Positions 24,843 through 46,075 of a stretch of DNA of 64,000 bases are shown one piece after another. The stretch spans positions 1-64,000 of IMG/VR virus record IMGVR_UViG_3300006735_000013. The stretch is one strand, 5' to 3'. Under the pieces are notes generated by a model. It did not search any database. It had not been told where the DNA came from and worked only from the letters and a program-made list of their open reading frames with translations. Source of the stretch: a virus. The position numbers were made by a program, and so were the translations under genes. Positions within the stretch are counted from its first letter, which is position 1. Each line of letters begins with the position of its first letter.

Positions 24843-25106
24843 TTATGCCGGCGCAATCATTTTACGAATGTCTTGGGCCATACCAAGGTATGGCCCAAAA
24901 GTATAATTGCCGCCCCCATCTTGGGGGTGAGCATCGCCATAGGCCTTGCCCAACTCACCCAGCATAACTATAACCCTTTCGGCCAGTTCATGATATCTTT
25001 GGACCGATTCAATGTCACCTTCTGTGCCGCCCATTATTTGCTCTTGCAAAGCTTTTTGCAATTCTTCCTTTATAATTTGTTGTAGATATTTTTTTGAAAT
25101 CTTCAT
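24843..25106 (-). CDS. MKISKK-family small protein
   Basis: 87 residues. Leader MKISKKYLQQIIKEELQKAL, then an unrelated helical body with Gly-rich turns. GAAGGAGAATCAT precedes the ATG. First member, by position, of a tandem group of four open frames (five leaders) with near-identical starts and unlike bodies, as expected if the leader is a shared targeting or propeptide signal. Confidence 0.6.
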   Translation of the reverse strand: MKISKKYLQQIIKEELQKALQEQIMGGTEGDIESVQRYHELAERVIVMLGELGKAYGDAHPQDGGGNYTFGPYLGMAQDIRKMIAPA

Positions 25107-25138
25107 ATGATTCTCCTTCTACTTTTTATGATTTATGA

Positions 25139-25777
25139 TCAACCGGGCGCCTTGTTGACAAGCTCTCCAAGCTGACTCGCGAGGGTTTCAACCTGGCGGC
25201 CGATCAGGCCCTCACCAACCGCAGGGCCTGCACCGGTGTCAGGGCTCACTATCTCCTCGTAGTCAACAAGACTAGCACCAATCTGGCTCAACTCACGGAC
25301 TATCTGTGCAAGTCGATTGACCAGGCGGCCGCGGTTTGGCTGTTTGATTGGGTACCCCGTCGAGCCCACAGTGCGTTTGTTCGTTTTGCGCCTTCGAAGC
25401 GCGCTGCGCGCCGAGAAAGACGGCTGCTCTTGCAAAGTTTTTTGCAATTCTTCCTTTATAAGCCTTTGCAATTTTTTCTTGGAAATTTTCATGTTGTCTT
25501 TTTCTCCTGTTTCTTCAAGCCGCGGCATAAGCTCTGCCGCTGCATCTACTTTGTTCATTGTATTGTTTTTTAGCTTTTTTAGCTCTTGATCTAAGTATTG
25601 TACTTTTACATCTAATTTCATAAGGCGACTGAGCGCCGCGCGACTTCCATTTGGATTTTTCTTGCTCAAGAGGTTTGTATACGCGAGTTCGCTGGTTGTC
25701 CCCGATTCATTACTGATGTTAACATCGCTTACTTCTTCTTTTATGATCTCCAATATTTTTTTTTTGGAAATTTTCAT
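25139..25777 (-). CDS. MKISKK-family protein with two leaders in one frame
   Basis: 212 residues. Leader one (MKISKKKILEIIKEEV) starts the protein; leader two (MKISKKKLQRLIKEELQKTL) starts at residue 96, ATG 25492, with ACAGGAGAAAAAGACAAC just before it. This looks like two neighbouring genes fused by loss of a stop codon, with the old ribosome-binding site kept as linker codons. Either a polyprotein or two nested products. Bodies are unrelated to each other. Confidence 0.6.
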   Translation of the reverse strand: MKISKKKILEIIKEEVSDVNISNESGTTSELAYTNLLSKKNPNGSRAALSRLMKLDVKVQYLDQELKKLKNNTMNKVDAAAELMPRLEETGEKDNMKISKKKLQRLIKEELQKTLQEQPSFSARSALRRRKTNKRTVGSTGYPIKQPNRGRLVNRLAQIVRELSQIGASLVDYEEIVSPDTGAGPAVGEGLIGRQVETLASQLGELVNKAPG

Positions 25778-25804
25778 GCTGTCTTGCTTCTCCTCTTTTA
25801 TGCT

Positions 25805-26437
25805 TTATGGGCCCTTTCTTTTTGCGACTAGAGTCTTCACGTCCACAGTGAATGCACCAGTACCTTGTGTTTTTGTTATGATCTTGTCTGTGTACTGCTG
25901 AGTATATTGGGGCAGCGTTAGGTTTGCCTTTTCGGCGGCTTTTCTCCTAGCACCTTGGAGTGGGTCATCTCCACGAAGAAGTCCTTGCCTTGAAAGAACA
26001 ACCTCAATCTTTTTTGGTCTAGAAGACTCTCGATCCTGCGCGCTCATAGCGGCTTGATCCATGTCAGCCTGTGTTGGAACATCCCCAACCCGGCTCCGAG
26101 CTGCAGCATCTTCCTTCTCTTGACTGGTCTTAACATCTTTTACATAGTTTAGGAACCCTGATCGCTCGTTCTCATATGAATATAGAAAGGAGTTTGCTAG
26201 TCTTTTTCTGTTTCCAGTTACTACCAACCCTGACTTCCCAGCTAAAAAGTCTGCTATAGCCTGATGATCATCACTATTAGAGAACCCAAGCTTTTCTCTG
26301 TTCTTGTACACAAGCTGCACAGCTTGTGGGTACTTTGTTAGCCATTCCATCGCTGCAGGCGACTTTCCTTGCTCTAGAATTGCAGCCTGTACTTCTTCTT
26401 TTATCACTTCTTGTAAATATTTTTTTGAAATTTTCAT
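25805..26437 (-). CDS. MKISKK-family protein
   Basis: 210 residues. Leader MKISKKYLQEVIKEEVQAAI, then a body with no named domain, basic C-terminal half. AAAGGAAGTAAGACACTC precedes the ATG. Part of the tandem tag family at 24.8-26.9 kb. Confidence 0.6.
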   Translation of the reverse strand: MKISKKYLQEVIKEEVQAAILEQGKSPAAMEWLTKYPQAVQLVYKNREKLGFSNSDDHQAIADFLAGKSGLVVTGNRKRLANSFLYSYENERSGFLNYVKDVKTSQEKEDAAARSRVGDVPTQADMDQAAMSAQDRESSRPKKIEVVLSRQGLLRGDDPLQGARRKAAEKANLTLPQYTQQYTDKIITKTQGTGAFTVDVKTLVAKRKGP

Positions 26438-26460
26438 GAGTGTCTTACTTCCTTTATTGT

Positions 26461-26877
26461 TTATCCTTCTCTCAAAGCTTCGAACTCATCTCTGAAAGCT
26501 TTTAGGAGTTGCCAGGTGGCTTTTTCTGACGTCATTCCCAGCCAGACAGACCAATTGGTCTGTGCTTCGGGTCCTTGTGGCTGCAAATGCCACTCTTCCC
26601 AGTCTTGCACCCACCGTTGAAGGCTAGCATCATTAGGAAGAACGCCCGATACAATCTTCTTTGCTCCTCCAAACAGTCTCTCAATTTTTTTCCGATGGAA
26701 ATTAGGGTTTAGGGCCCTGTTATCTGAATGGCCACTGAAGTCGTTAAAAACGCTTCGAAACGCAGCGTTAAGTTTGTGGGCCTTCGAGCTGATTTTCCCC
26801 CGTACGGCGCGCGGCATGTCGTATCTCGACACTTCCTCTTTTATAATTTTTTGTAAATATTTTTTAGAAATTTTCAT
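26461..26877 (-). CDS. MKISKK-family protein, first in cluster
   Basis: 138 residues. Leader MKISKKYLQKIIKEEVSRYD, then a basic helical body with several Trp near the C-terminus. It is the promoter-proximal gene of the tag family, 27 bases after an ACTATTTA box. Function unknown; an internal head protein is the working idea. Confidence 0.6.
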   Translation of the reverse strand: MKISKKYLQKIIKEEVSRYDMPRAVRGKISSKAHKLNAAFRSVFNDFSGHSDNRALNPNFHRKKIERLFGGAKKIVSGVLPNDASLQRWVQDWEEWHLQPQGPEAQTNWSVWLGMTSEKATWQLLKAFRDEFEALREG

Positions 26878-32617: not shown

Positions 32618-32646
32618 AGTATAGCAGCTAAACTACTGAAAGTCAA
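32618..32646 (-). promoter_or_regulatory. Early promoter
   Basis: TTGACT, 17 bases, TATACT. Its -35 overlaps the last codons of the barrel gene at 32643. Confidence 0.8.
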
Positions 32647-32840
32647 GGACTTTTTATGATTTTTAGGTCATAATCCCAAACATTATTTCCAACGGTACCG
32701 TTGCGCCACAAGACCTTGAATACCTTATTAGTGCAACCCAAGCCCCTGTTGTGTCCGACATTCTCAACAAGCACACCAATTCTTTCAGCACACTTGCGGC
32801 GGCTTGGATGATTGTCTCTTACCAAATCACCGACTTTCAC
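32643..32840 (-). CDS. MKVGDLV barrel protein
   Basis: 65 residues: MKVGDLVRD, RIGVLVENV, FKVLWRNG and a closing LKII. Starts at GTG 32840 within a 14-base overlap with the gene upstream. SH3/KOW-like small beta barrel by pattern; function unknown. Confidence 0.6.
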   Translation of the reverse strand: MKVGDLVRDNHPSRRKCAERIGVLVENVGHNRGLGCTNKVFKVLWRNGTVGNNVWDYDLKIIKSP

Positions 32841-33054
32841 TGATAACCTCCACTGTCATTTCACCCTGTTCTGGATCGAAAGAATCTTTGTGGTAGGACT
32901 CGTGCGCCCCGTCGTTGTATAGTATACTCCAGTGTCCGTAGGCTAGTGGTCCATATTCTGTGCCGCCTGCTAGGGGGTCAAAGGGAAGCAGGACTCCGTA
33001 GTGGTCTCCTTCAAAACCATAGAAACTAACCTTCACCAAATCACCGACTTTCAC
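32827..33054 (-). CDS. MKVGDLV barrel protein
   Basis: 75 residues from GTG 33054. VKVGDLVKVSF, YGVLLPFDP, WSILYNDG; ends EVISESR, the last codons being shared with the start of the next gene (32827-32840). Confidence 0.6.
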   Translation of the reverse strand: MKVGDLVKVSFYGFEGDHYGVLLPFDPLAGGTEYGPLAYGHWSILYNDGAHESYHKDSFDPEQGEMTVEVISESR

Positions 33055-33241
33055 TGATAACCTCACAATAACTTGTTACGAACCAATCAGTTTTGCCGTG
33101 CTGGTCCAAAACCTTAAGTGTCCCTCCAGCTTCATTCACATATATTATTGTCCCGTATACTGGAGAATCTTCATCATGGCGGAACTGGGATCCATCGGGA
33201 TTTTTCGTGTAGCCATACTTTACCAAGTCACCCTTCTTCAT
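33041..33241 (-). CDS. MKKGDLV barrel protein
   Basis: 66 residues from ATG 33241. MKKGDLVKYGY, YGTIIYVNE, LKVLDQHGKTDWF; ends EVISESR through a 14-base overlap. Its own start overlaps the lipoprotein gene by 14 bases (ATGAAGAAGGGTGA). Confidence 0.6.
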   Translation of the reverse strand: MKKGDLVKYGYTKNPDGSQFRHDEDSPVYGTIIYVNEAGGTLKVLDQHGKTDWFVTSYCEVISESR

Positions 33242-33425
33242 TTCTACACTCCTCCCAGCACCATTCTGTGCGATAATAATTGCATGTTTCTCCGCACTCG
33301 TTTTTTTGGCAGTCGCTCTCTAGTTGGTCTTCACACACCATCGCCTTTTGACAATTAGGGCTGTCCTCTATTGGGCAGCCAGTCAGCAAGAGTAAACTAA
33401 AAACTACAACAAAAATCAATCTCAT
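33228..33425 (-). CDS. Cys-rich lipoprotein
   Basis: 65 residues from ATG 33425. Signal peptide RLIFVVVFSLLLLTGC with lipobox LTGC, then nine further Cys in 48 residues, suggesting a disulfide-rich periplasmic knot. Its last codons (NEEG stop) are read from the start of the downstream barrel gene. Possible superinfection-exclusion or host-envelope protein; unproven. Confidence 0.65.
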   Translation of the reverse strand: MRLIFVVVFSLLLLTGCPIEDSPNCQKAMVCEDQLESDCQKNECGETCNYYRTEWCWEECRNEEG

Positions 33426-33426
33426 A

Positions 33427-33666
33427 TTATCTTCTCTTTCTGTAGGCAAACTTCAAATCTCTTCTTTCAAAGAGAGTGCTAAAGTATATCCAGTGGTCGG
33501 TTGGGTGCCCCTTGGTGTTTGCGCGGCTTTTCATCCACGCGACCTTATATTTATGAGGTAGACTTCCAAAGCTTTTGACAATTCCAATATCGCCGGCCTC
33601 AACCCACTTGCACCTTTTCAGTTTTTTTCCTGATGCAGAAAGCATAACCAGATCACCAACCTTCAT
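33427..33666 (-). CDS. MKVGDLV barrel protein
   Basis: 79 residues from ATG 33666 (ATGA overlap upstream). MKVGDLVMLSASG, DIGIVKSFGSL, YKVAWMKS, then a basic tail (KFAYRKRR). A longer variant of the family with an extra C-terminal strand and basic end. Confidence 0.6.
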   Translation of the reverse strand: MKVGDLVMLSASGKKLKRCKWVEAGDIGIVKSFGSLPHKYKVAWMKSRANTKGHPTDHWIYFSTLFERRDLKFAYRKRR

Positions 33667-33863
33667 CGGCCTACGCTCCTCGCTGTCTGCACCGTGCCAA
33701 TATACTGGTATGCACCCTTGTTGTAAGCAGGCGCAGAGCATCTTGCTTTGCGTGCAACCTCAATGTCTGCAATCTTGCCTCCGCAATCTAAGCAGGTTCG
33801 ATAGCCAAGCTCTGCTCTCTTTGGGCTGTAATCTTCGCTGCATTCAATACAGGTGGGACTCAT
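33663..33863 (-). CDS. Zinc-ribbon protein
   Basis: 66 residues. CIEC and CLDC about 18 residues apart around DYSPKRAELGYRT form a clear four-Cys zinc ribbon, a form I know from marine phages. The basic C-terminus may bind nucleic acid. Overlaps its neighbours by 1 and 4 bases. Confidence 0.65.
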   Translation of the reverse strand: MSPTCIECSEDYSPKRAELGYRTCLDCGGKIADIEVARKARCSAPAYNKGAYQYIGTVQTARSVGR

Positions 33864-36112: not shown

Positions 36113-36259
36113 CTATGGTGCTGAAATCCTTGAGAATTTTATTCTTTCGCCATATTCTTGCTCTAAGTTTTTCTTCTTTTTGGCGCAGATCTTCTTCAGT
36201 GCATAGATATGCTGTTGCGGGCCTTTGTCAATCCTGTAGGATAATTTGTATATTGTCAC
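36113..36259 (-). CDS. Small basic protein
   Basis: 48 residues from GTG 36259 in a GTGA overlap with the barrel gene upstream. Lys-rich (LKKICAKKKKNLEQEYGERIKF). It ends eight bases before tRNA-Lys, so the three tRNAs are probably processed from the same transcript. Confidence 0.5.
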   Translation of the reverse strand: MTIYKLSYRIDKGPQQHIYALKKICAKKKKNLEQEYGERIKFSRISAP

Positions 36260-36456
36260 GCTTTACTCACTATTTCTAAACTATCTGAGGTGGTCCAAAA
36301 TGTGCCATAATCACCCGGCCATTGGACTCTAACAGATGGGGTCTCGAACGTTCCGTCTACTCGTTGCCAAGTGTTTGCGTACACCACGACACCAACCAGA
36401 CCTTCGGTTACAATACCTGGTTTATACTTCTTCTTCACCAAATCACCTATTTTCAT
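36256..36456 (-). CDS. MKIGDLV barrel protein
   Basis: 66 residues from ATG 36456. MKIGDLVKKKY, LVGVVVYANTW, VRVQWPGDYGTFW, LEIV. The first 14 bases (ATGAAAATAGGTGA) also end the cytidylyltransferase gene. Confidence 0.6.
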   Translation of the reverse strand: MKIGDLVKKKYKPGIVTEGLVGVVVYANTWQRVDGTFETPSVRVQWPGDYGTFWTTSDSLEIVSKA

Positions 36457-36868
36457 GCTCGGCTATCCTTTTTCTCAATTCTGAGGAAGACCATTTATGA
36501 TTCCTACTATTAAAGTATAACTCAATTTCTAGATCATGTCCAGTAAATTCTTTTCCCTCATGGTCTGCGCCGAGAATTCTGATGTCAGGCTTGAGGTCGG
36601 ATAGTAGCTTGTAAAGCTCCTCCTCAGTCTCATAAACCATGACTTCATCAACGTACTTCACTGCACTAATTTGAATCATTCGCTCGCGGATGGACTGGAT
36701 GGGCCTATTCTTATAGTCTCTGTCCATTGAGGGGTCAGTCTGTAATCCAACAATTAAGTAATCACACACAGACTTAGCCTCCTTAAGCATTAGTATATGG
36801 CCTGCGTGAAGCAGATCAAATGAACCACAAGTAAAGCCGCGGCTCATGGCAATGCGCGCTTCTGTCAT
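36443..36868 (-). CDS. TagD-like cytidylyltransferase
   Basis: 141 residues, typical for glycerol-3-phosphate cytidylyltransferase relatives. HAGH motif in GFTCGSFDLLHAGHILML (near 12-29), DYLIVGLQTD, and the late motif RNHKWSSSELRKRI. Transfers a nucleotide to a small phosphate, perhaps for wall, DNA or tRNA modification; substrate unknown. Its C-terminus EHENR is fixed by the overlap with the next barrel gene. Confidence 0.75.
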   Translation of the reverse strand: MTEARIAMSRGFTCGSFDLLHAGHILMLKEAKSVCDYLIVGLQTDPSMDRDYKNRPIQSIRERMIQISAVKYVDEVMVYETEEELYKLLSDLKPDIRILGADHEGKEFTGHDLEIELYFNSRNHKWSSSELRKRIAEHENR

Positions 36869-38607: not shown

Positions 38608-39804
38608 TCAGTCAACTACTACAACTCTTTCTTTAGTCTCAAAATAGGGCCGCGAAGCATGTGCCTCCGTGGTCATCCACATACGCTGACATTTACTGGG
38701 TCGTGGCTTTGGTGCCATCATATCCGTAACAATAATATGACCGTCAAATGACTTGTTGTTCACGTACTCTGTTGGTGCGTCAAAACATGTTCCGCCTTTC
38801 ATAACTCGTTGGACTTGGACTTTCTTGCCCTTCTTCCAATCCCAAACCAAACTCTCGTCAACACGAGTATCGAAAGGAATAACCGTAAACTCTGCGATTT
38901 CTGCAAGTTTGTTAAGCTCTGCAAAAAACTTGGCTAACATATCATCGGTCACCGATCCAGACTGGTCAATGCTGATTGCTACCTTAGCCACACGGTTGGC
39001 CTTGCGGCCTGGGTGAACGTATGCGTACCTACGATTGATTCGCTTGATCGAACTGGACCTGTTCGCCTTCTGGCTAGCCTTTACAAAGTACCTGAGAACC
39101 TTCTTCCAGTCAACCTTAGTCTCCAAGACTTTCATAATCTTTTCGCGACAATCTCGTGAAACGGTACCCCAACTATTGTTCTTGGCGCAGTCCTCTCCGG
39201 CCTTGCGGATGATGTCCTTCAGGCGTTCTTTGGCCATGTCTTTAACCTCTTGGTTACATTTGCCCCAACCACTGTGATCATCAAGAGTTTCAATATCTGC
39301 TTCATCAAACTCAGAAGGACTGTCGGCTGGCGCGCCTCCTTCGCCCTCTTCATAGACGTCTTGCTCCTCCTTGGTAGTTTTCTTCTTAGGGAGATTAGCC
39401 AGATACCATTCAGCACTCATCCCTCTTGGTAGATCCTTGAACGGACCCACGCCAGGAATCAGACCACCTTCTGGTAGGTTCTCCAAGTGAGAGTTGATAG
39501 CAAGATCTGCGGCAATGTTCCAGCGCTTTATGTTTTCGCCTTCAGGCATTCTATCCGTCACATGCAAAAATGTGATGTGATAAAATTCATGTTTAAGCAC
39601 ATCACGGCGCTCTGCATCTGTAAGTCCTTCAAAGAAGTCTGGATTGTATAACATCTCGAATTGAGCGGTGCTTGGATTGACCAGGACACCCGCCGTTGGA
39701 ATGCTGTAAGTCGCCCTCTTGTCGATGCGTCTGGATACGGCGGCAAAGAATGGCTCGTCCATGAGAAGGCGCGCGGTGTGAATGTTGAGGTCGAAATTAG
39801 ACAT
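38608..39804 (-). CDS. DUF2201-type metallopeptidase/VWA protein
   Basis: 398 residues from ATG 39804 (AGGAG upstream). The N-terminal part has HEFYH (72-76), an HExxH motif in the style of DUF2201. The C-terminal VWA-like domain has SIDQSGSV, a DxSxS metal site, with further sites in IPFDTRVD and KGGTCF. Such proteins work with MoxR AAA+ ATPases, encoded next door, to remodel or mature a protein complex. The target is not known. Confidence 0.8.
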   Translation of the reverse strand: MSNFDLNIHTARLLMDEPFFAAVSRRIDKRATYSIPTAGVLVNPSTAQFEMLYNPDFFEGLTDAERRDVLKHEFYHITFLHVTDRMPEGENIKRWNIAADLAINSHLENLPEGGLIPGVGPFKDLPRGMSAEWYLANLPKKKTTKEEQDVYEEGEGGAPADSPSEFDEADIETLDDHSGWGKCNQEVKDMAKERLKDIIRKAGEDCAKNNSWGTVSRDCREKIMKVLETKVDWKKVLRYFVKASQKANRSSSIKRINRRYAYVHPGRKANRVAKVAISIDQSGSVTDDMLAKFFAELNKLAEIAEFTVIPFDTRVDESLVWDWKKGKKVQVQRVMKGGTCFDAPTEYVNNKSFDGHIIVTDMMAPKPRPSKCQRMWMTTEAHASRPYFETKERVVVVD

Positions 39805-39814
39805 CTTAGTTCTC

Positions 39815-40870
39815 CTACTTATCTCCGGCAAGGATCTTTACCAAATAGTCTGAGACGGAGTCGCCGTCCACATTTGATTGGTGAAGCTTGATTGTATTGT
39901 TGATTTCCCCACTGCCAAGCACTGACCACAGTTTCATTGCAACTTCTGAAGGTAGAGAGATGAAGTACCTTGCAAGATTGTCTACCTTGTTCTGATCGAG
40001 TTCAGCCTTGAAAACCTCGGACGCTTCAAACTTGTCAATTAGAGCGGTGTGGTCGTTGATACCAAAGTCAGCAACCTTGTGCAAGTTGCCATGGTCGAGA
40101 ATATCCTCAATCGTTACCTGCCTATCGTAATTCTGAACGAAATCGTTGAACGCGACGGCAGCCTCGAAGCCAACAAATGCGGACGTCAAGGAGTAGAGTG
40201 TTGGTGACGCCTCCTTCAAAAGCTCAGCCTTCTGTAGACATTCGTCTAGACGCTCCCACGAACGGCGCGAAGGATAAACCTTGTTAGGCTCAAAGTCGTC
40301 TGAGTGTTCAAGGTGGGCGCGGTTGGTGTTGATAAAGTTCCAAGTAACCTCAGAAACCTCCGAGTCCTTAGCCCACGACAACCAGTCCTCGACGCTGGGC
40401 TCAACGTCAAACACCGTCCAACGGTCAAGCTCGGCTGGGTCCATCTCGCCAACCTGATATTGTGCCCCATGCTCGCCGCCATTGACAGCGGCGAAGACTA
40501 GGGTGTCAGGGTGAAGTGTGTGGCCGTTAAGCTTGCGTGAGTCTGTAAGCTCAAAGATGCCCTGGCGGACCTCAAGAGTGGCACGATCAACCTCGTCAAG
40601 GAACAAAACGACAGGTCGGTCACAAGCAGCCTTGAACCAGTCCGGCGGGTTGAAGCGCGTTGAGTTACTCTCAATACTAGGAAGGCCAACCAAGTCGCCC
40701 TCGGTCATTTGAGATGCGCGCCGCTCCACAACCTCCATGCTCTGCTGGGCGGCGTACTGATAGACAACTGTAGACTTGCCGATGCCATGACGTCCACGTA
40801 GCAAAACTGGTTTGCGTACGTTAGTTACGTGGTGAACGATATTTGAGAATGTTGCGAAATCAACTGCCAT
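39815..40870 (-). CDS. MoxR-type AAA+ ATPase
   Basis: 351 residues. Walker A GRHGIGKST (26-34), Walker B VLFLDEVDRA (about 88-97), sensor phrase FAAVNGG and a C-terminal helical lid. Forms a pair with the VWA gene downstream, as MoxR/VWA chaperone systems do. Has its own strong promoter. Likely remodels a host or phage complex; not a replication clamp loader by motif. Confidence 0.85.
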   Translation of the reverse strand: MAVDFATFSNIVHHVTNVRKPVLLRGRHGIGKSTVVYQYAAQQSMEVVERRASQMTEGDLVGLPSIESNSTRFNPPDWFKAACDRPVVLFLDEVDRATLEVRQGIFELTDSRKLNGHTLHPDTLVFAAVNGGEHGAQYQVGEMDPAELDRWTVFDVEPSVEDWLSWAKDSEVSEVTWNFINTNRAHLEHSDDFEPNKVYPSRRSWERLDECLQKAELLKEASPTLYSLTSAFVGFEAAVAFNDFVQNYDRQVTIEDILDHGNLHKVADFGINDHTALIDKFEASEVFKAELDQNKVDNLARYFISLPSEVAMKLWSVLGSGEINNTIKLHQSNVDGDSVSDYLVKILAGDK

Positions 40871-42026: not shown

Positions 42027-42233
42027 TTAATAAGCATACTTTATTTCTTTTCTTGAGTGGTTAGGGTTCTGGCCAACGATCTGCACTGGCCACTGAACCG
42101 TGTAACCGTAAGCCCTGTTAGGATGACACTCTATTACCAGCCCGACCAGGTTTGGATCTTCCCTGGCAATCGGGATGTTCCATTGTCTTTTTTTTCCGTA
42201 AGCGGAAAGCTTTACCAAATCACCGACTTTCAC
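42027..42233 (-). CDS. MKVGDLV barrel protein (array copy 9)
   Basis: 68 residues: MKVGDLVKLSAYGKK, LVGLVIECH, YGYTVQWP. Last copy; its tail KEIKYAY differs because no barrel gene overlaps its end. Confidence 0.65.
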   Translation of the reverse strand: MKVGDLVKLSAYGKKRQWNIPIAREDPNLVGLVIECHPNRAYGYTVQWPVQIVGQNPNHSRKEIKYAY

Positions 42234-42390
42234 TGACTAGCTCCAGATTTTCTTTTAGAGCTGGTACCGATGTGCCGGTATCAACAAACACTATTTTGAC
42301 CATACCCGGAGGTCCATCAAACAAGACCAGGGCGGGTCTGCGTCTGGCCCGGCAAAAATTCTTAAGAACCACCAAATCACCGACTTTCAC
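42220..42390 (-). CDS. MKVGDLV barrel protein (array copy 8)
   Basis: 56 residues from GTG 42390: MKVGDLVVLKN, RPALVLFDG, VKIVFVDTG, ends LELVSESR via the 14-base overlap. Confidence 0.65.
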   Translation of the reverse strand: MKVGDLVVLKNFCRARRRPALVLFDGPPGMVKIVFVDTGTSVPALKENLELVSESR

Positions 42391-42577
42391 TGACTAGCTC
42401 CAAATCTTCCTCTTCATAACTTTCTAGACCACCGCTCTGTGATACTACGTCAACAAGATAGTAATGCTCGTATGGATAAGCCTCACCACCGGGTTTGCAG
42501 TCTTCAGAGAGCCTAGCTTCTGATACAACAACACCAACCTCATACCCGTCTACAAAGACCAAATCACCGACTTTCAC
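42377..42577 (-). CDS. MKVGDLV barrel protein (array copy 7)
   Basis: 66 residues: MKVGDLVFVDGYEVGVVVSE, HYYLVDVVSQ, LELVSESR. Acidic; 14-base overlaps at both ends. Confidence 0.65.
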   Translation of the reverse strand: MKVGDLVFVDGYEVGVVVSEARLSEDCKPGGEAYPYEHYYLVDVVSQSGGLESYEEEDLELVSESR

Positions 42578-42746
42578 TGATTAGCTCCAATTCTTCGTGG
42601 TCGTCAGGTATTGGGCCCGTAGGAGGGCCTTCGAACCACATAACATATACCACGCTATCTCCACCGATAAGTGAACCTTTCCTTACAGACAGCACGATAC
42701 CCGTATCGCCATCGACTCTCCATCTTACCAAGTCGCCGGCTTTCAT
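42564..42746 (-). CDS. MKAGDLV barrel protein (array copy 6)
   Basis: 60 residues from ATG 42746: MKAGDLVRWRVDGDTGIVLSV, YVMWFEG, LELISESR. Start overlaps copy 5 by ATGA only. Confidence 0.65.
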   Translation of the reverse strand: MKAGDLVRWRVDGDTGIVLSVRKGSLIGGDSVVYVMWFEGPPTGPIPDDHEELELISESR

Positions 42747-42928
42747 GAAATTCTCCTTAGATATTTCTCCTGAACATTTTCACTGATATGTCCAGTCTTT
42801 TGCCATAAGACTCTGTATTCATTTGCATCATACCTATGAATCAAAAAGTCGATGCTGAAACCCAAAATAACACCAATATTTTTCAGACCCTTTCTGCGAG
42901 TTGAGTACACCAAATCACCGACTTTCAC
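42743..42928 (-). CDS. MKVGDLV barrel protein (array copy 5)
   Basis: 61 residues: MKVGDLVYSTRRKG, IGVILGFS, YRVLWQKTG. Ends KYLRRIS without the SESR tail, since copy 6 follows through a 4-base overlap. Confidence 0.65.
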   Translation of the reverse strand: MKVGDLVYSTRRKGLKNIGVILGFSIDFLIHRYDANEYRVLWQKTGHISENVQEKYLRRIS

Positions 42929-43103
42929 TGATTACCACCAGTGCTTTATAGCTCCATAATCTTTTGCCGTGTGCTGTGACGACGTGAACGTCAGGATTCA
43001 AGAACGCACTCTCATCATAACTCGGACACTTGCCAGCATAACCTAGGCCCGTCACGATTCCTGTGTGGCCTTGTCCATTTTTTACTAAATCACCGACTTT
43101 CAC
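42915..43103 (-). CDS. MKVGDLV barrel protein (array copy 4)
   Basis: 62 residues: MKVGDLVKNGQGHTGIVTGLG, VHVVTAHGKRLW, VVISESR. Confidence 0.65.
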   Translation of the reverse strand: MKVGDLVKNGQGHTGIVTGLGYAGKCPSYDESAFLNPDVHVVTAHGKRLWSYKALVVISESR

Positions 43104-43284
43104 TGATTACCTCCGCTTGTGATTCCCATAGTGGACCTGTCAAAGTGGGGAATGTTGGAGAGTGTTTGTCCCACAAGACTTTGAACAGCCTCCTGCGAGA
43201 TGACAGTGGGCGAGGAACTTCTGCCGTGACAATGCCAACTCTTTCCAGTCCCCAACTCTCTTTTACTAAATCACCGACCTTCAC
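43090..43284 (-). CDS. MKVGDLV barrel protein (array copy 3)
   Basis: 64 residues from GTG 43284: MKVGDLVKESWGLERVGIVTAE, FKVLWDKH, AEVISESR. A longer open frame upstream runs through copy 2 in another frame and is ignored. Confidence 0.65.
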   Translation of the reverse strand: MKVGDLVKESWGLERVGIVTAEVPRPLSSRRRLFKVLWDKHSPTFPTLTGPLWESQAEVISESR

Positions 43285-43420
43285 TGAGCAACTCCGTATC
43301 ATCCCTGTGGATACGATATTCTCCGTCAGGAAAGAGAACATAAAATCCGAACGGAACAACCCTGGTGATAATGCCAAGACCATCGGAACTAACCTGTTTT
43401 ACTAAATCACCGACTTTCAC
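43271..43420 (-). CDS. MKVGDLV barrel protein (array copy 2)
   Basis: 49 residues, the shortest copy: MKVGDLVKQVSSDGLGIITRV, FYVLFPDGEYRIH, ELLSEGR. Close to a minimal barrel. Confidence 0.65.
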   Translation of the reverse strand: MKVGDLVKQVSSDGLGIITRVVPFGFYVLFPDGEYRIHRDDTELLSEGR

Positions 43421-43574
43421 TTATCACCTCCAGATACATTTCCGTCAACCATTCTTTACCGTGGCCGCTCCACACAACCTTGAACATCCCCTCGGGTTCG
43501 TCTACCTCGATAACGATTCCATATTGCGCATCTCGAATCCAATCTTTGTCCCTTACCAAGTCACCGACTTTCAT
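43407..43574 (-). CDS. MKVGDLV barrel protein (array copy 1)
   Basis: 55 residues from ATG 43574: MKVGDLVRDKDW, YGIVIEVDEPEGMFKVVWSGHGKEW, LEVISESR. First protein gene after tRNA-Arg, 22 bases from it. Confidence 0.65.
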   Translation of the reverse strand: MKVGDLVRDKDWIRDAQYGIVIEVDEPEGMFKVVWSGHGKEWLTEMYLEVISESR

Positions 43575-45214: not shown

Positions 45215-45885
45215 CCTCTTTTCCTCTTCAGGTCTGATTCGTGTGCGTAAACAGGACTTGCCTCACCAGTAAATAGTACCTTGTATATCCTAGAGCCCTT
45301 CGCGGCTCTAGTAACCGGCTTTGCATCAGCTTCAAGTACAAAGCCAATCTTTTGTTCCATTTTATAGCGAGCGGATCGGTTAGGATAACTATCAGGGCCT
45401 GCGTTTGCTATATCAATTTTGTTATTAGACCTGACCTGAACACAATCCGACACCTTAAACTTTAAAGGTTGCTCGTAATTATTTCTAATCTTGAGAGCAT
45501 ATTTGTTCTCGCAAAACTTATCCCAATCTTTTTTTGAGAGAACAAAATTTTCAGGGTCGGATAGTACAGCGTTGACGTGAATAGCATAGTACTGGGTTGT
45601 CTTATAGTATAGAGCCACCTTAGTTGCAATGTTCCTATGGCCATCTGAGAAGTTTTTATCCCAGAGTGACATCTCTTTTAGTTTATCTTCGCTGTATTTG
45701 TCCTCAATTTTTCTTAGCCACTGTTCCTGGCTGTAACTGAGTTGGTCTCTGGTATTCGCCTGCGACACTAGAGAATTCAGAAAGTCACTCTCCCTGTAGG
45801 TAAGGTAGCCCTTTGCGCTATTTATAAGACTTTTGAGTTCTGATTTGCTTATTTTTCTTGGGGTAAAATATTCTTCATTTCTCAT
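45211..45885 (-). CDS. Protein with C-terminal barrel domain
   Basis: 224 residues from ATG 45885 (11-base overlap). N-terminal helical region begins RKISKSELKSLINSAKG, similar to the KISK tags. C-terminal 75 residues have VQVRSNNK, KIGFVLEAD, YKVLFTGE, the barrel pattern joined to another domain. Function unknown. Confidence 0.5.
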   Translation of the reverse strand: MRNEEYFTPRKISKSELKSLINSAKGYLTYRESDFLNSLVSQANTRDQLSYSQEQWLRKIEDKYSEDKLKEMSLWDKNFSDGHRNIATKVALYYKTTQYYAIHVNAVLSDPENFVLSKKDWDKFCENKYALKIRNNYEQPLKFKVSDCVQVRSNNKIDIANAGPDSYPNRSARYKMEQKIGFVLEADAKPVTRAAKGSRIYKVLFTGEASPVYAHESDLKRKRG

Positions 45886-46075
45886 TGTGTGACTCTCTGA
45901 TTTCTTCAAGGGGTTTAAGATTGCTAGAAATAGTGTAATATGCCTTCGATTCTTTTTGAAAGTAGACTTTGTAAATATCTTCCGAACCTTCAAATATACT
46001 TGAATCAAATTCTTCGATTATGACGCCACGAGCGTAGTCATGCCTTACGTCTACTACTAAATCTCCGACCTTCAT
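45875..46075 (-). CDS. MKVGDLV barrel protein
   Basis: 66 residues: MKVGDLVVDVRHDYARGVIIEEF, YKVYFQKES. First gene behind promoter 46103-46131. Confidence 0.6.
   Translation of the reverse strand: MKVGDLVVDVRHDYARGVIIEEFDSSIFEGSEDIYKVYFQKESKAYYTISSNLKPLEEIRESHNEK

What the first reader, a model, noticed from the sequence alone, without database searches (positions are those of the whole stretch)
42027..43574. Tandem gene array in which one 14-base segment ends each gene and starts the next
Nine short MKVGDLV genes run head to tail. At seven junctions GTGAAAGTCGGTGA lies at 42220, 42377, 42564, 42915, 43090, 43271 and 43407 (first or third base varies slightly), coding MKVGD in one frame and SES/SEG-R-stop in another. 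The same geometry occurs at 32827, 33041, 33228 and 36443, where the upstream gene may be unrelated (a lipoprotein; a cytidylyltransferase). So the C-terminus of whatever precedes is dictated by the barrel gene. This gives tight translational coupling, and recombination between junctions would add or drop whole genes with both frames intact: a cassette system for gene gain.
Basis: partly seen in the sequence, partly recalled or inferred. Interest (0 to 1): 0.88.

Follow-up and report, generated by a model that had tools for sequence, protein, structure and literature searches.

The report
Phage gene cassettes joined by shared ends
In T4-type phages known only from metagenomes, small genes lie head to tail so that a 14-base stretch ends one gene and starts the next, and comparison of related phages shows that whole genes have been swapped, gained or lost by crossovers inside that shared stretch.

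Summary
The array is real. Nine MKVGDLV genes run head to tail (42027-43574, minus strand); seven of eight junctions overlap by exactly 14 nt, the eighth by 4. The geometry is widespread in IMG/VR: 558 of 712 successive barrel-gene pairs in 157 non-redundant loci overlap by exactly 14 nt. Of 26 long records carrying it, 23 encode a T4-type portal.

The cassette idea is strongly supported by comparison. Homologous cassettes mostly have different neighbours. Where a 75-100% identical cassette has a new neighbour, identity falls from about 90% to about 25% at the junction, on either side. Informative bases place the crossovers at about 0 to +15 from the start codon, essentially the overlap itself. 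Two contigs otherwise 99.5-100% identical over 11 kb differ by one 176-bp cassette bounded by 20-bp junction repeats. A collinear relative carries four shared cassette types in reversed order.

Unrelated upstream genes also end in -ESR through the same overlap. The start segment stops translation in both other frames, so it fits most upstream genes.

Best reading: a coding boundary sequence for general (UvsX/RecA-type) recombination, like PeSLs but inside overlapping reading frames. The recombination enzyme, translational coupling and barrel function were not tested.

The parts
43407..43574 (-). cassette 1, ATG start, ends ...LEVISESR
   Evidence: ORF; in-frame extension to 43598 lies upstream of the MKVGD start
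43271..43420 (-). cassette 2, GTG start, ends ...LLSEGR
   Evidence: ORF; 14-nt overlap with cassette 1 at 43407-43420
43090..43284 (-). cassette 3, GTG start, ends ...EVISESR
   Evidence: ORF; 14-nt overlap at 43271-43284 (GTGAAGGTCGGTGA)
42915..43103 (-). cassette 4 (SH3-like by AlphaFold2; 84% identical homologue in G005, 94% in L091)
   Evidence: ORF; overlap at 43090-43103; homologues; fold
42743..42928 (-). cassette 5, ends ...YLRRIS with its own stop
   Evidence: ORF; overlap at 42915-42928
42564..42746 (-). cassette 6, ATG start (MKAGD), preceded by a 4-nt ATGA overlap
   Evidence: ORF
42377..42577 (-). cassette 7, ends ...LELVSESR
   Evidence: ORF; overlap at 42564-42577
42220..42390 (-). 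cassette 8, ends ...LELVSESR
   Evidence: ORF; overlap at 42377-42390
42027..42233 (-). cassette 9, last of the array; no SESR tail because no barrel start follows
   Evidence: ORF; overlap at 42220-42233
33041..33241 (-). second array, cassette a (MKKGD); overlaps an unrelated lipoprotein-like ORF (33228-33449) by 14 nt
32827..33054 (-). second array, cassette b; absent at the equivalent place in L019
   Evidence: indel
32643..32840 (-). second array, cassette c (last; ends ...KIIKSP)
   Evidence: its best homologue in G005 lies in the main array there
36256..36456 (-). single cassette; overlaps a cytidylyltransferase-like gene (36443-36868) by 14 nt, which ends HENR
33427..33666 (-). single cassette (ATGAAGGTTGGTGA), 4-nt overlap with the upstream ORF 33663-33863
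45875..46075 (-). relative with a diverged start (GGA codon, so no built-in stop in the second upstream frame)

Best explanation
The array is a set of interchangeable gene cassettes. Each encodes a small SH3-like (five-strand) protein. It starts with RTG-AAA-GTC-GGT-GAY (MKVGD), and its last beta strand (codons for E-V-I) carries the Shine-Dalgarno sequence for whatever follows. The start segment holds a TGA in each of the two other frames (bases 2-4 and 12-14), so an upstream gene in either of those frames is closed by it with a 4-nt or 14-nt overlap. Because about 15-20 bp are shared by most cassettes of many phages, homologous crossovers within the overlap exchange, add or drop whole genes and leave a complete upstream end, ribosome site and start. 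Shown by comparison: the geometry, its spread, reshuffled neighbours, junction breakpoints, clean one-cassette differences, and reuse with unrelated upstream genes. Inferred: that the phage's general recombination machinery (UvsX/RecA-like, gp32-like) does it, that translation is coupled, and that the proteins act as a variable, perhaps host-facing, accessory set.
For: Geometry: 558 of 712 non-redundant barrel pairs overlap by exactly 14 nt. Shuffling: homologous cassettes with barrel neighbours have different neighbours in 95/85/26% of comparisons (50-70/70-90/90-100% aa identity) against 67/45/10% for ordinary genes of the same contigs. 562 distinct adjacencies occur among 632 pairs, and only 3 of 632 are same-cluster, so local duplication is not the main source. 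Breakpoints: identity drops to about 25% at the junction on either side; linkage of informative bases places crossovers at about 0 to +15. Indels: 15 of 21 indels that carry barrel genes have both ends at a barrel start (about 5% expected; events partly redundant). L016/L018 differ by exactly one 176-bp cassette between 20-bp repeats. Collinear relative G005 has the four shared clusters in reversed order. DNA-level conservation: GTC at codon 3 is 78% in overlaps and 56% outside, against 19% in gene bodies and 6% at codon 7; GTC exceeds GTA 138:23 although both give Ser-Arg upstream and AGG is commoner than CGG in bodies. SD: GAG at the E codon in 478 of 493 overlapping genes, 216 of 283 array-end genes, 44% in bodies. 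Enzymes: RecA family in 13 of 14 records; no tyrosine or serine recombinase in 7; gp32-like SSB next to RecA in this phage.
Against: All comparative data are metagenome contigs; no cultured phage with the junction was found. 20 bp is short for RecA-type exchange, and no rate is known. The 14-nt geometry also follows partly from the codons themselves (GGT-GAY forces the stop), and GTA/GTG variants exist, so dual-coding and ribosome-site constraint explain part of the conservation. Three of 21 barrel-carrying indels have neither end at a barrel start and three only one. Some array neighbours are joined by other overlaps (4, 10, 1 nt).
Confidence: 0.82

Rival explanations
1. Ordinary tandem duplication followed by divergence: the overlap is inherited from an ancestral pair and kept by dual-coding and ribosome-site constraint; no special exchange occurs at the junction.
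For: All genes share one N-terminus and probably one fold; the constraint is visible: GTT, which would put Trp in the upstream C-terminus, is 1 of 178 in overlaps against 18 of 81 elsewhere.
Against: Adjacent genes are almost never close relatives (3 of 632 same cluster), whereas close relatives sit in other phages with other neighbours. Identity breaks at the junction in recent pairs. Unrelated upstream genes carry the same overlap. The GTC over GTA excess is not explained by either protein.
Confidence: 0.1
2. A dedicated site-specific or nuclease-driven system (integron-like integrase, invertase or homing-type nuclease) recognises the junction and moves cassettes.
For: Long conserved core, cassette-sized indels, cassettes in one orientation; a GIY-YIG nuclease-like gene recurs next to barrel genes (5 loci adjacent, 5 with the 14-nt overlap, 7 members in all).
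Against: No tyrosine or serine recombinase in 7 records. Crossover points appear spread over about 15 bp rather than at one phosphodiester. The core tolerates variants (MQ, MKI, MKA starts). The GIY-YIG gene is in few loci.
Confidence: 0.08
3. Assembly artefact: short-read assemblers joined or collapsed cassettes at the 20-bp repeats, creating false orders.
For: All contigs are from metagenomes and the repeats lie exactly at the breakpoints.
Against: A 20-bp repeat is shorter than the larger k-mers such assemblers commonly use (own knowledge). 64 adjacencies recur in two or more loci. The 14-nt overlap itself cannot be created by misjoining. The window's own collinear relative differs in cassette content, not only in order.
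Confidence: 0.05

Closest known systems
PeSLs (promoter early stem-loops), the mobile regulatory cassettes of T4-type phages (Arbiol 2010; Comeau 2014; not held in the library, cited through PMC4503421 and PMC3950731)
   Same: Short repeated sequences at borders of small variable genes of T4-type phages that mediate gene shuffling (as reported in PMC4503421).
   Different: PeSLs are early-promoter plus stem-loop motifs. Here the repeat is coding in two frames and carries a ribosome site; no promoter or terminator enrichment and no consistent hairpin was found.
Conserved boundary sequences in phage mosaicism, including the Island3/Brujita case (PMC3029335)
   Same: Homologous recombination at short conserved sequences near gene ends explains presence or absence of a whole small gene; in Island3 a ~50-bp repeat codes shared C-termini.
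   Different: [quoted passage not shown] Here one boundary recurs at hundreds of junctions in many phages and is also the start of the next gene.
Start-Associated Sequences of Cluster K mycobacteriophages (PMC3203893)
   Same: A short repeated motif at the starts of many genes with a proposed translation role, scattered through phage genomes.
   Different: In the passages read, SAS are motifs at translation starts with a proposed translation role, not overlapping codons of two genes and not exchange points.
Integron gene cassettes
   Same: Single-gene units of one orientation in arrays that differ between relatives.
   Different: No integrase found in 7 records; attC sites were not searched; the boundary is coding and overlapping.

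Membership tests
PeSL-type modular shuffling of T4-type phages | host genome is a T4-type phage | tested here: met
   T4 portal in 23 of 26 records, E 3.5e-74 or better; T4-type terminase in this phage
PeSL-type modular shuffling of T4-type phages | repeated motif at gene borders associated with gene shuffling | tested here: met
PeSL-type modular shuffling of T4-type phages | motif contains an early promoter and a stem-loop terminator | tested here: not met
   promoter-like sites 2 (2.5 expected), terminator-like 1 (1.1 expected) in the array; four of five junction RNAs fold no better than shuffles; host promoter consensus unknown
Boundary-sequence homologous recombination (general phage mosaicism) | homology breaks coincide with a short conserved sequence | tested here: met
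Boundary-sequence homologous recombination (general phage mosaicism) | general recombination enzymes carry it out | tested here: inconclusive
   RecA family in 13 of 14 records; activity not testable here
Integron | tyrosine recombinase integrase | tested here: not met
   PF00589 absent in 7 records, controls ring; records may be fragments
Integron | attC folded recombination sites between cassettes | not tested
   no specific attC search was run; only junction RNA folds
SH3-like small barrel fold | five-strand barrel with a short turn before the last strand | tested here: met
   AlphaFold2 of cassette 4 only, pLDDT 78, pTM 0.64, five strands; best PDB matches include Tudor, KOW and CAP-Gly domains but none at E <= 0.001
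Any named Pfam or PHROGs family | match above the curated cut-off (Pfam) or at a convincing E-value (PHROGs) | tested here: not met
   nothing for ten cassettes

The most novel reading that the evidence does not exclude
The junction is a shared exchange port: a dual-coding sequence maintained across many phage lineages because it lets any cassette be accepted from any co-infecting phage, i.e. an integrase-free, integron-like gene-sharing system under selection for exchange itself, possibly helped by a dedicated phage protein.
Probability: 0.15. Interest if true: 0.93.

Novelty: new variant of a known kind. Interest (0 to 1): 0.8.

Why it matters
Whether phage mosaicism arises by homologous exchange at short boundary sequences or by illegitimate recombination has long been argued, mostly from single cases; PMC3029335 notes that boundary sequences cannot be found at most borders. 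Here is one sequence at hundreds of borders with mapped breakpoints and clean one-gene differences, so the question can be tested directly. It also shows how a gene's start can end almost any upstream gene, a simple rule that makes operons open to gene insertion, and it exposes a large unnamed family of small phage proteins (865 clusters at 50% identity among 1,437 genes).

Tried and rejected
Pfam and PHROGs scans of ten cassettes gave nothing convincing. A junction search in 50,697 phage records gave only matches of 25 nt or less; the Det7 19-nt match lies inside a gene on the other strand. tblastn of three cassettes against the same records found nothing. The junction in 257 Gb of bacterial and archaeal genomes gave 10 stretches, of which three have the array geometry (L282, L285, L289); L289 lies beyond a run of N in a WOR-3 scaffold and looks like a misjoined phage contig, so no host is claimed. 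Exact DNA identity as the sole constraint was rejected because the dual-synonymous GTA variant occurs. Hairpin or promoter at the junction was rejected. Literature searches for the motif and for tandem barrel arrays found no description; the library lacks most subscription papers, and the two PeSL papers were not held.

Full report
What is there. On the minus strand of 42027-43574 nine ORFs start M/V-K-V/A-G-D-L-V. Seven of the eight junctions share GTGAAAGTCGGTGA (one variant base at 43271), read as start-KVGD in the downstream frame and (S)-ESR-stop in the upstream frame; the eighth (42743/42746) is an ATGA overlap. A second array of three lies at 32643-33241, and single copies lie at 33427, 36256 and, diverged, 44640 and 45875. 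The record is a 159,578-bp virus contig and all MKVGD-type starts fall within 32-46 kb. Most of the overlaps are preceded by GGAG or GGAGG a few bases before the start, in codons for the upstream protein's last strand (contexts).

How general it is. Two further scans used only the protein start, ATG or GTG. Among 1,437 barrel ORFs, 632 of 796 successive pairs overlap by exactly 14 nt; 558 of 712 without near-duplicate loci, 238 of 327 in loci found by the protein-start scans, and 89 of 159 in loci the exact pattern scan never listed. 23 of 26 long records with the array have a T4-type portal; this phage also has a T4-type terminase, a RecA/UvsX-like protein and a gp32-like protein.

A start that ends most upstream genes. 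RTGAAR gives TGA at bases 2-4 in one other frame, and GGTGAY gives TGA at bases 12-14 in the second. So an upstream gene in either non-matching frame is closed within 14 nt, as the two commonest overlaps, 14 and 4 nt, show. Unrelated upstream genes also end in -ESR this way: GIY-YIG, SWIM-like zinc, MazG-like, thioredoxin-like and Smr-like proteins, named here from sequence motifs by eye and not by profile search. Homologous GIY-YIG genes in L194, L121, L053 and L087 are each followed by a different barrel gene.

Shuffling. Grouped at 50% identity, cluster 2 has 13 occurrences with 12 different successors. For cassettes 70-90% identical, barrel neighbours differ in 85% of comparisons, against 45% for ordinary genes of the same contigs. 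In pairs at least 75% identical with different upstream genes, identity is about 25% beyond -12 and mostly 80-100% inside the gene, lower at third codon positions; in the converse set it stays near 85% through the upstream gene's end and falls to about 25% after +20. Informative bases show linkage to the upstream gene fading between +8 and +17 and linkage to the downstream gene rising between 0 and +15 (25 and 32 pairs). Crossovers therefore lie within the shared core.

Single events. L016 and L018 (two metagenomes; 99.5-100% identical over 11 kb) differ by a 176-bp cassette between two copies of ATGAAAGTCGGTGATTTGGT; with the cassette the last overlap is 4 nt, without it 14 nt, and both states read correctly. 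L111/L115, L014/L016/L018/L118 and L054/L115 show similar cases. Of 21 indels carrying barrel genes, 15 have both ends at a barrel start, where about 5% is expected from a per-position value of 0.23 (events partly redundant). Record G005 is collinear with this phage over the core; the four clusters shared by the main arrays run 59-3-0-98 here and 98-0-3-59 there, all in the same orientation.

What the DNA conserves. Codon 3 is GTC in 138 of 178 overlapped starts and 45 of 81 others, while GTC is 19% of Val codons in bodies and 6% at codon 7. GTC and GTA both leave Ser-Arg upstream, and AGG is commoner than CGG in bodies, yet GTC:GTA is 138:23. So neither protein explains the preference; shared descent through exchange does. 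GTT, which would give Trp, is 1 of 178 in overlaps against 18 of 81 elsewhere, so the upstream frame is also constrained. The Glu codon in the Shine-Dalgarno is GAG in 478 of 493 overlapped genes, against 216 of 283 array-end genes and 44% in bodies.

The protein. AlphaFold2 of cassette 4 gives five strands in SH3 order (pLDDT 78, pTM 0.64); the last strand (55-59) is the E-V-I segment and the ESR tail is outside the fold. PDB matches include Tudor, KOW and CAP-Gly domains, none at E <= 0.001; one unnamed viral model matches at 7e-4. Function is unknown; many divergent, shuffled small genes suggest an accessory set, for example against host functions (inference).

Mechanism. The simplest account is homologous exchange or deletion at the shared core by the phage's own recombination system. 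RecA-family genes are in 13 of 14 records and no tyrosine or serine recombinase in 7. This step is inferred. Translational coupling is inferred from the anatomy.

Comparison. PeSLs do a similar job in T4-type phages with a promoter and stem-loop (PMC4503421, PMC3950731); neither was found at these junctions. Boundary-sequence recombination is an old proposal with few cases (PMC3029335). Cluster K SAS mark gene starts with a proposed translation role (PMC3203893). This is a new variant of boundary-mediated shuffling, in which the boundary is itself protein-coding in two frames and supplies the stop, ribosome site and start.

Limits.

Noticed in passing
24843-26877, minus strand: A second N-terminally conserved run of genes: four ORFs (one with the motif twice) begin MKISKKYLQ-x-IIKEE or similar but differ in the rest.
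   Followed up: no
L194, L121, L053, L087: A small GIY-YIG nuclease-like gene recurs immediately upstream of different barrel genes, with the 14-nt overlap.
   Followed up: partly
L289 (CP070664.1, WOR-3 MAG): Phage-like sequence with a barrel array lies beyond a run of N in a scaffold called a chromosome; probably a misjoined phage contig.
   Followed up: partly
12-64 kb of the window and L290: The phage carries GroEL-, ClpP-, IMP dehydrogenase-, adenylosuccinate synthetase-, dUTPase- and DnaE-like genes (by eye), and ThyX and a B12-type ribonucleotide reductase (Pfam).
   Followed up: partly
38608-40870, minus strand: A conserved AAA ATPase and VWA/DUF2201 metallopeptidase-like pair beside the array; the DUF2201-like gene family has 48 members in the fetched loci.
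   Followed up: no
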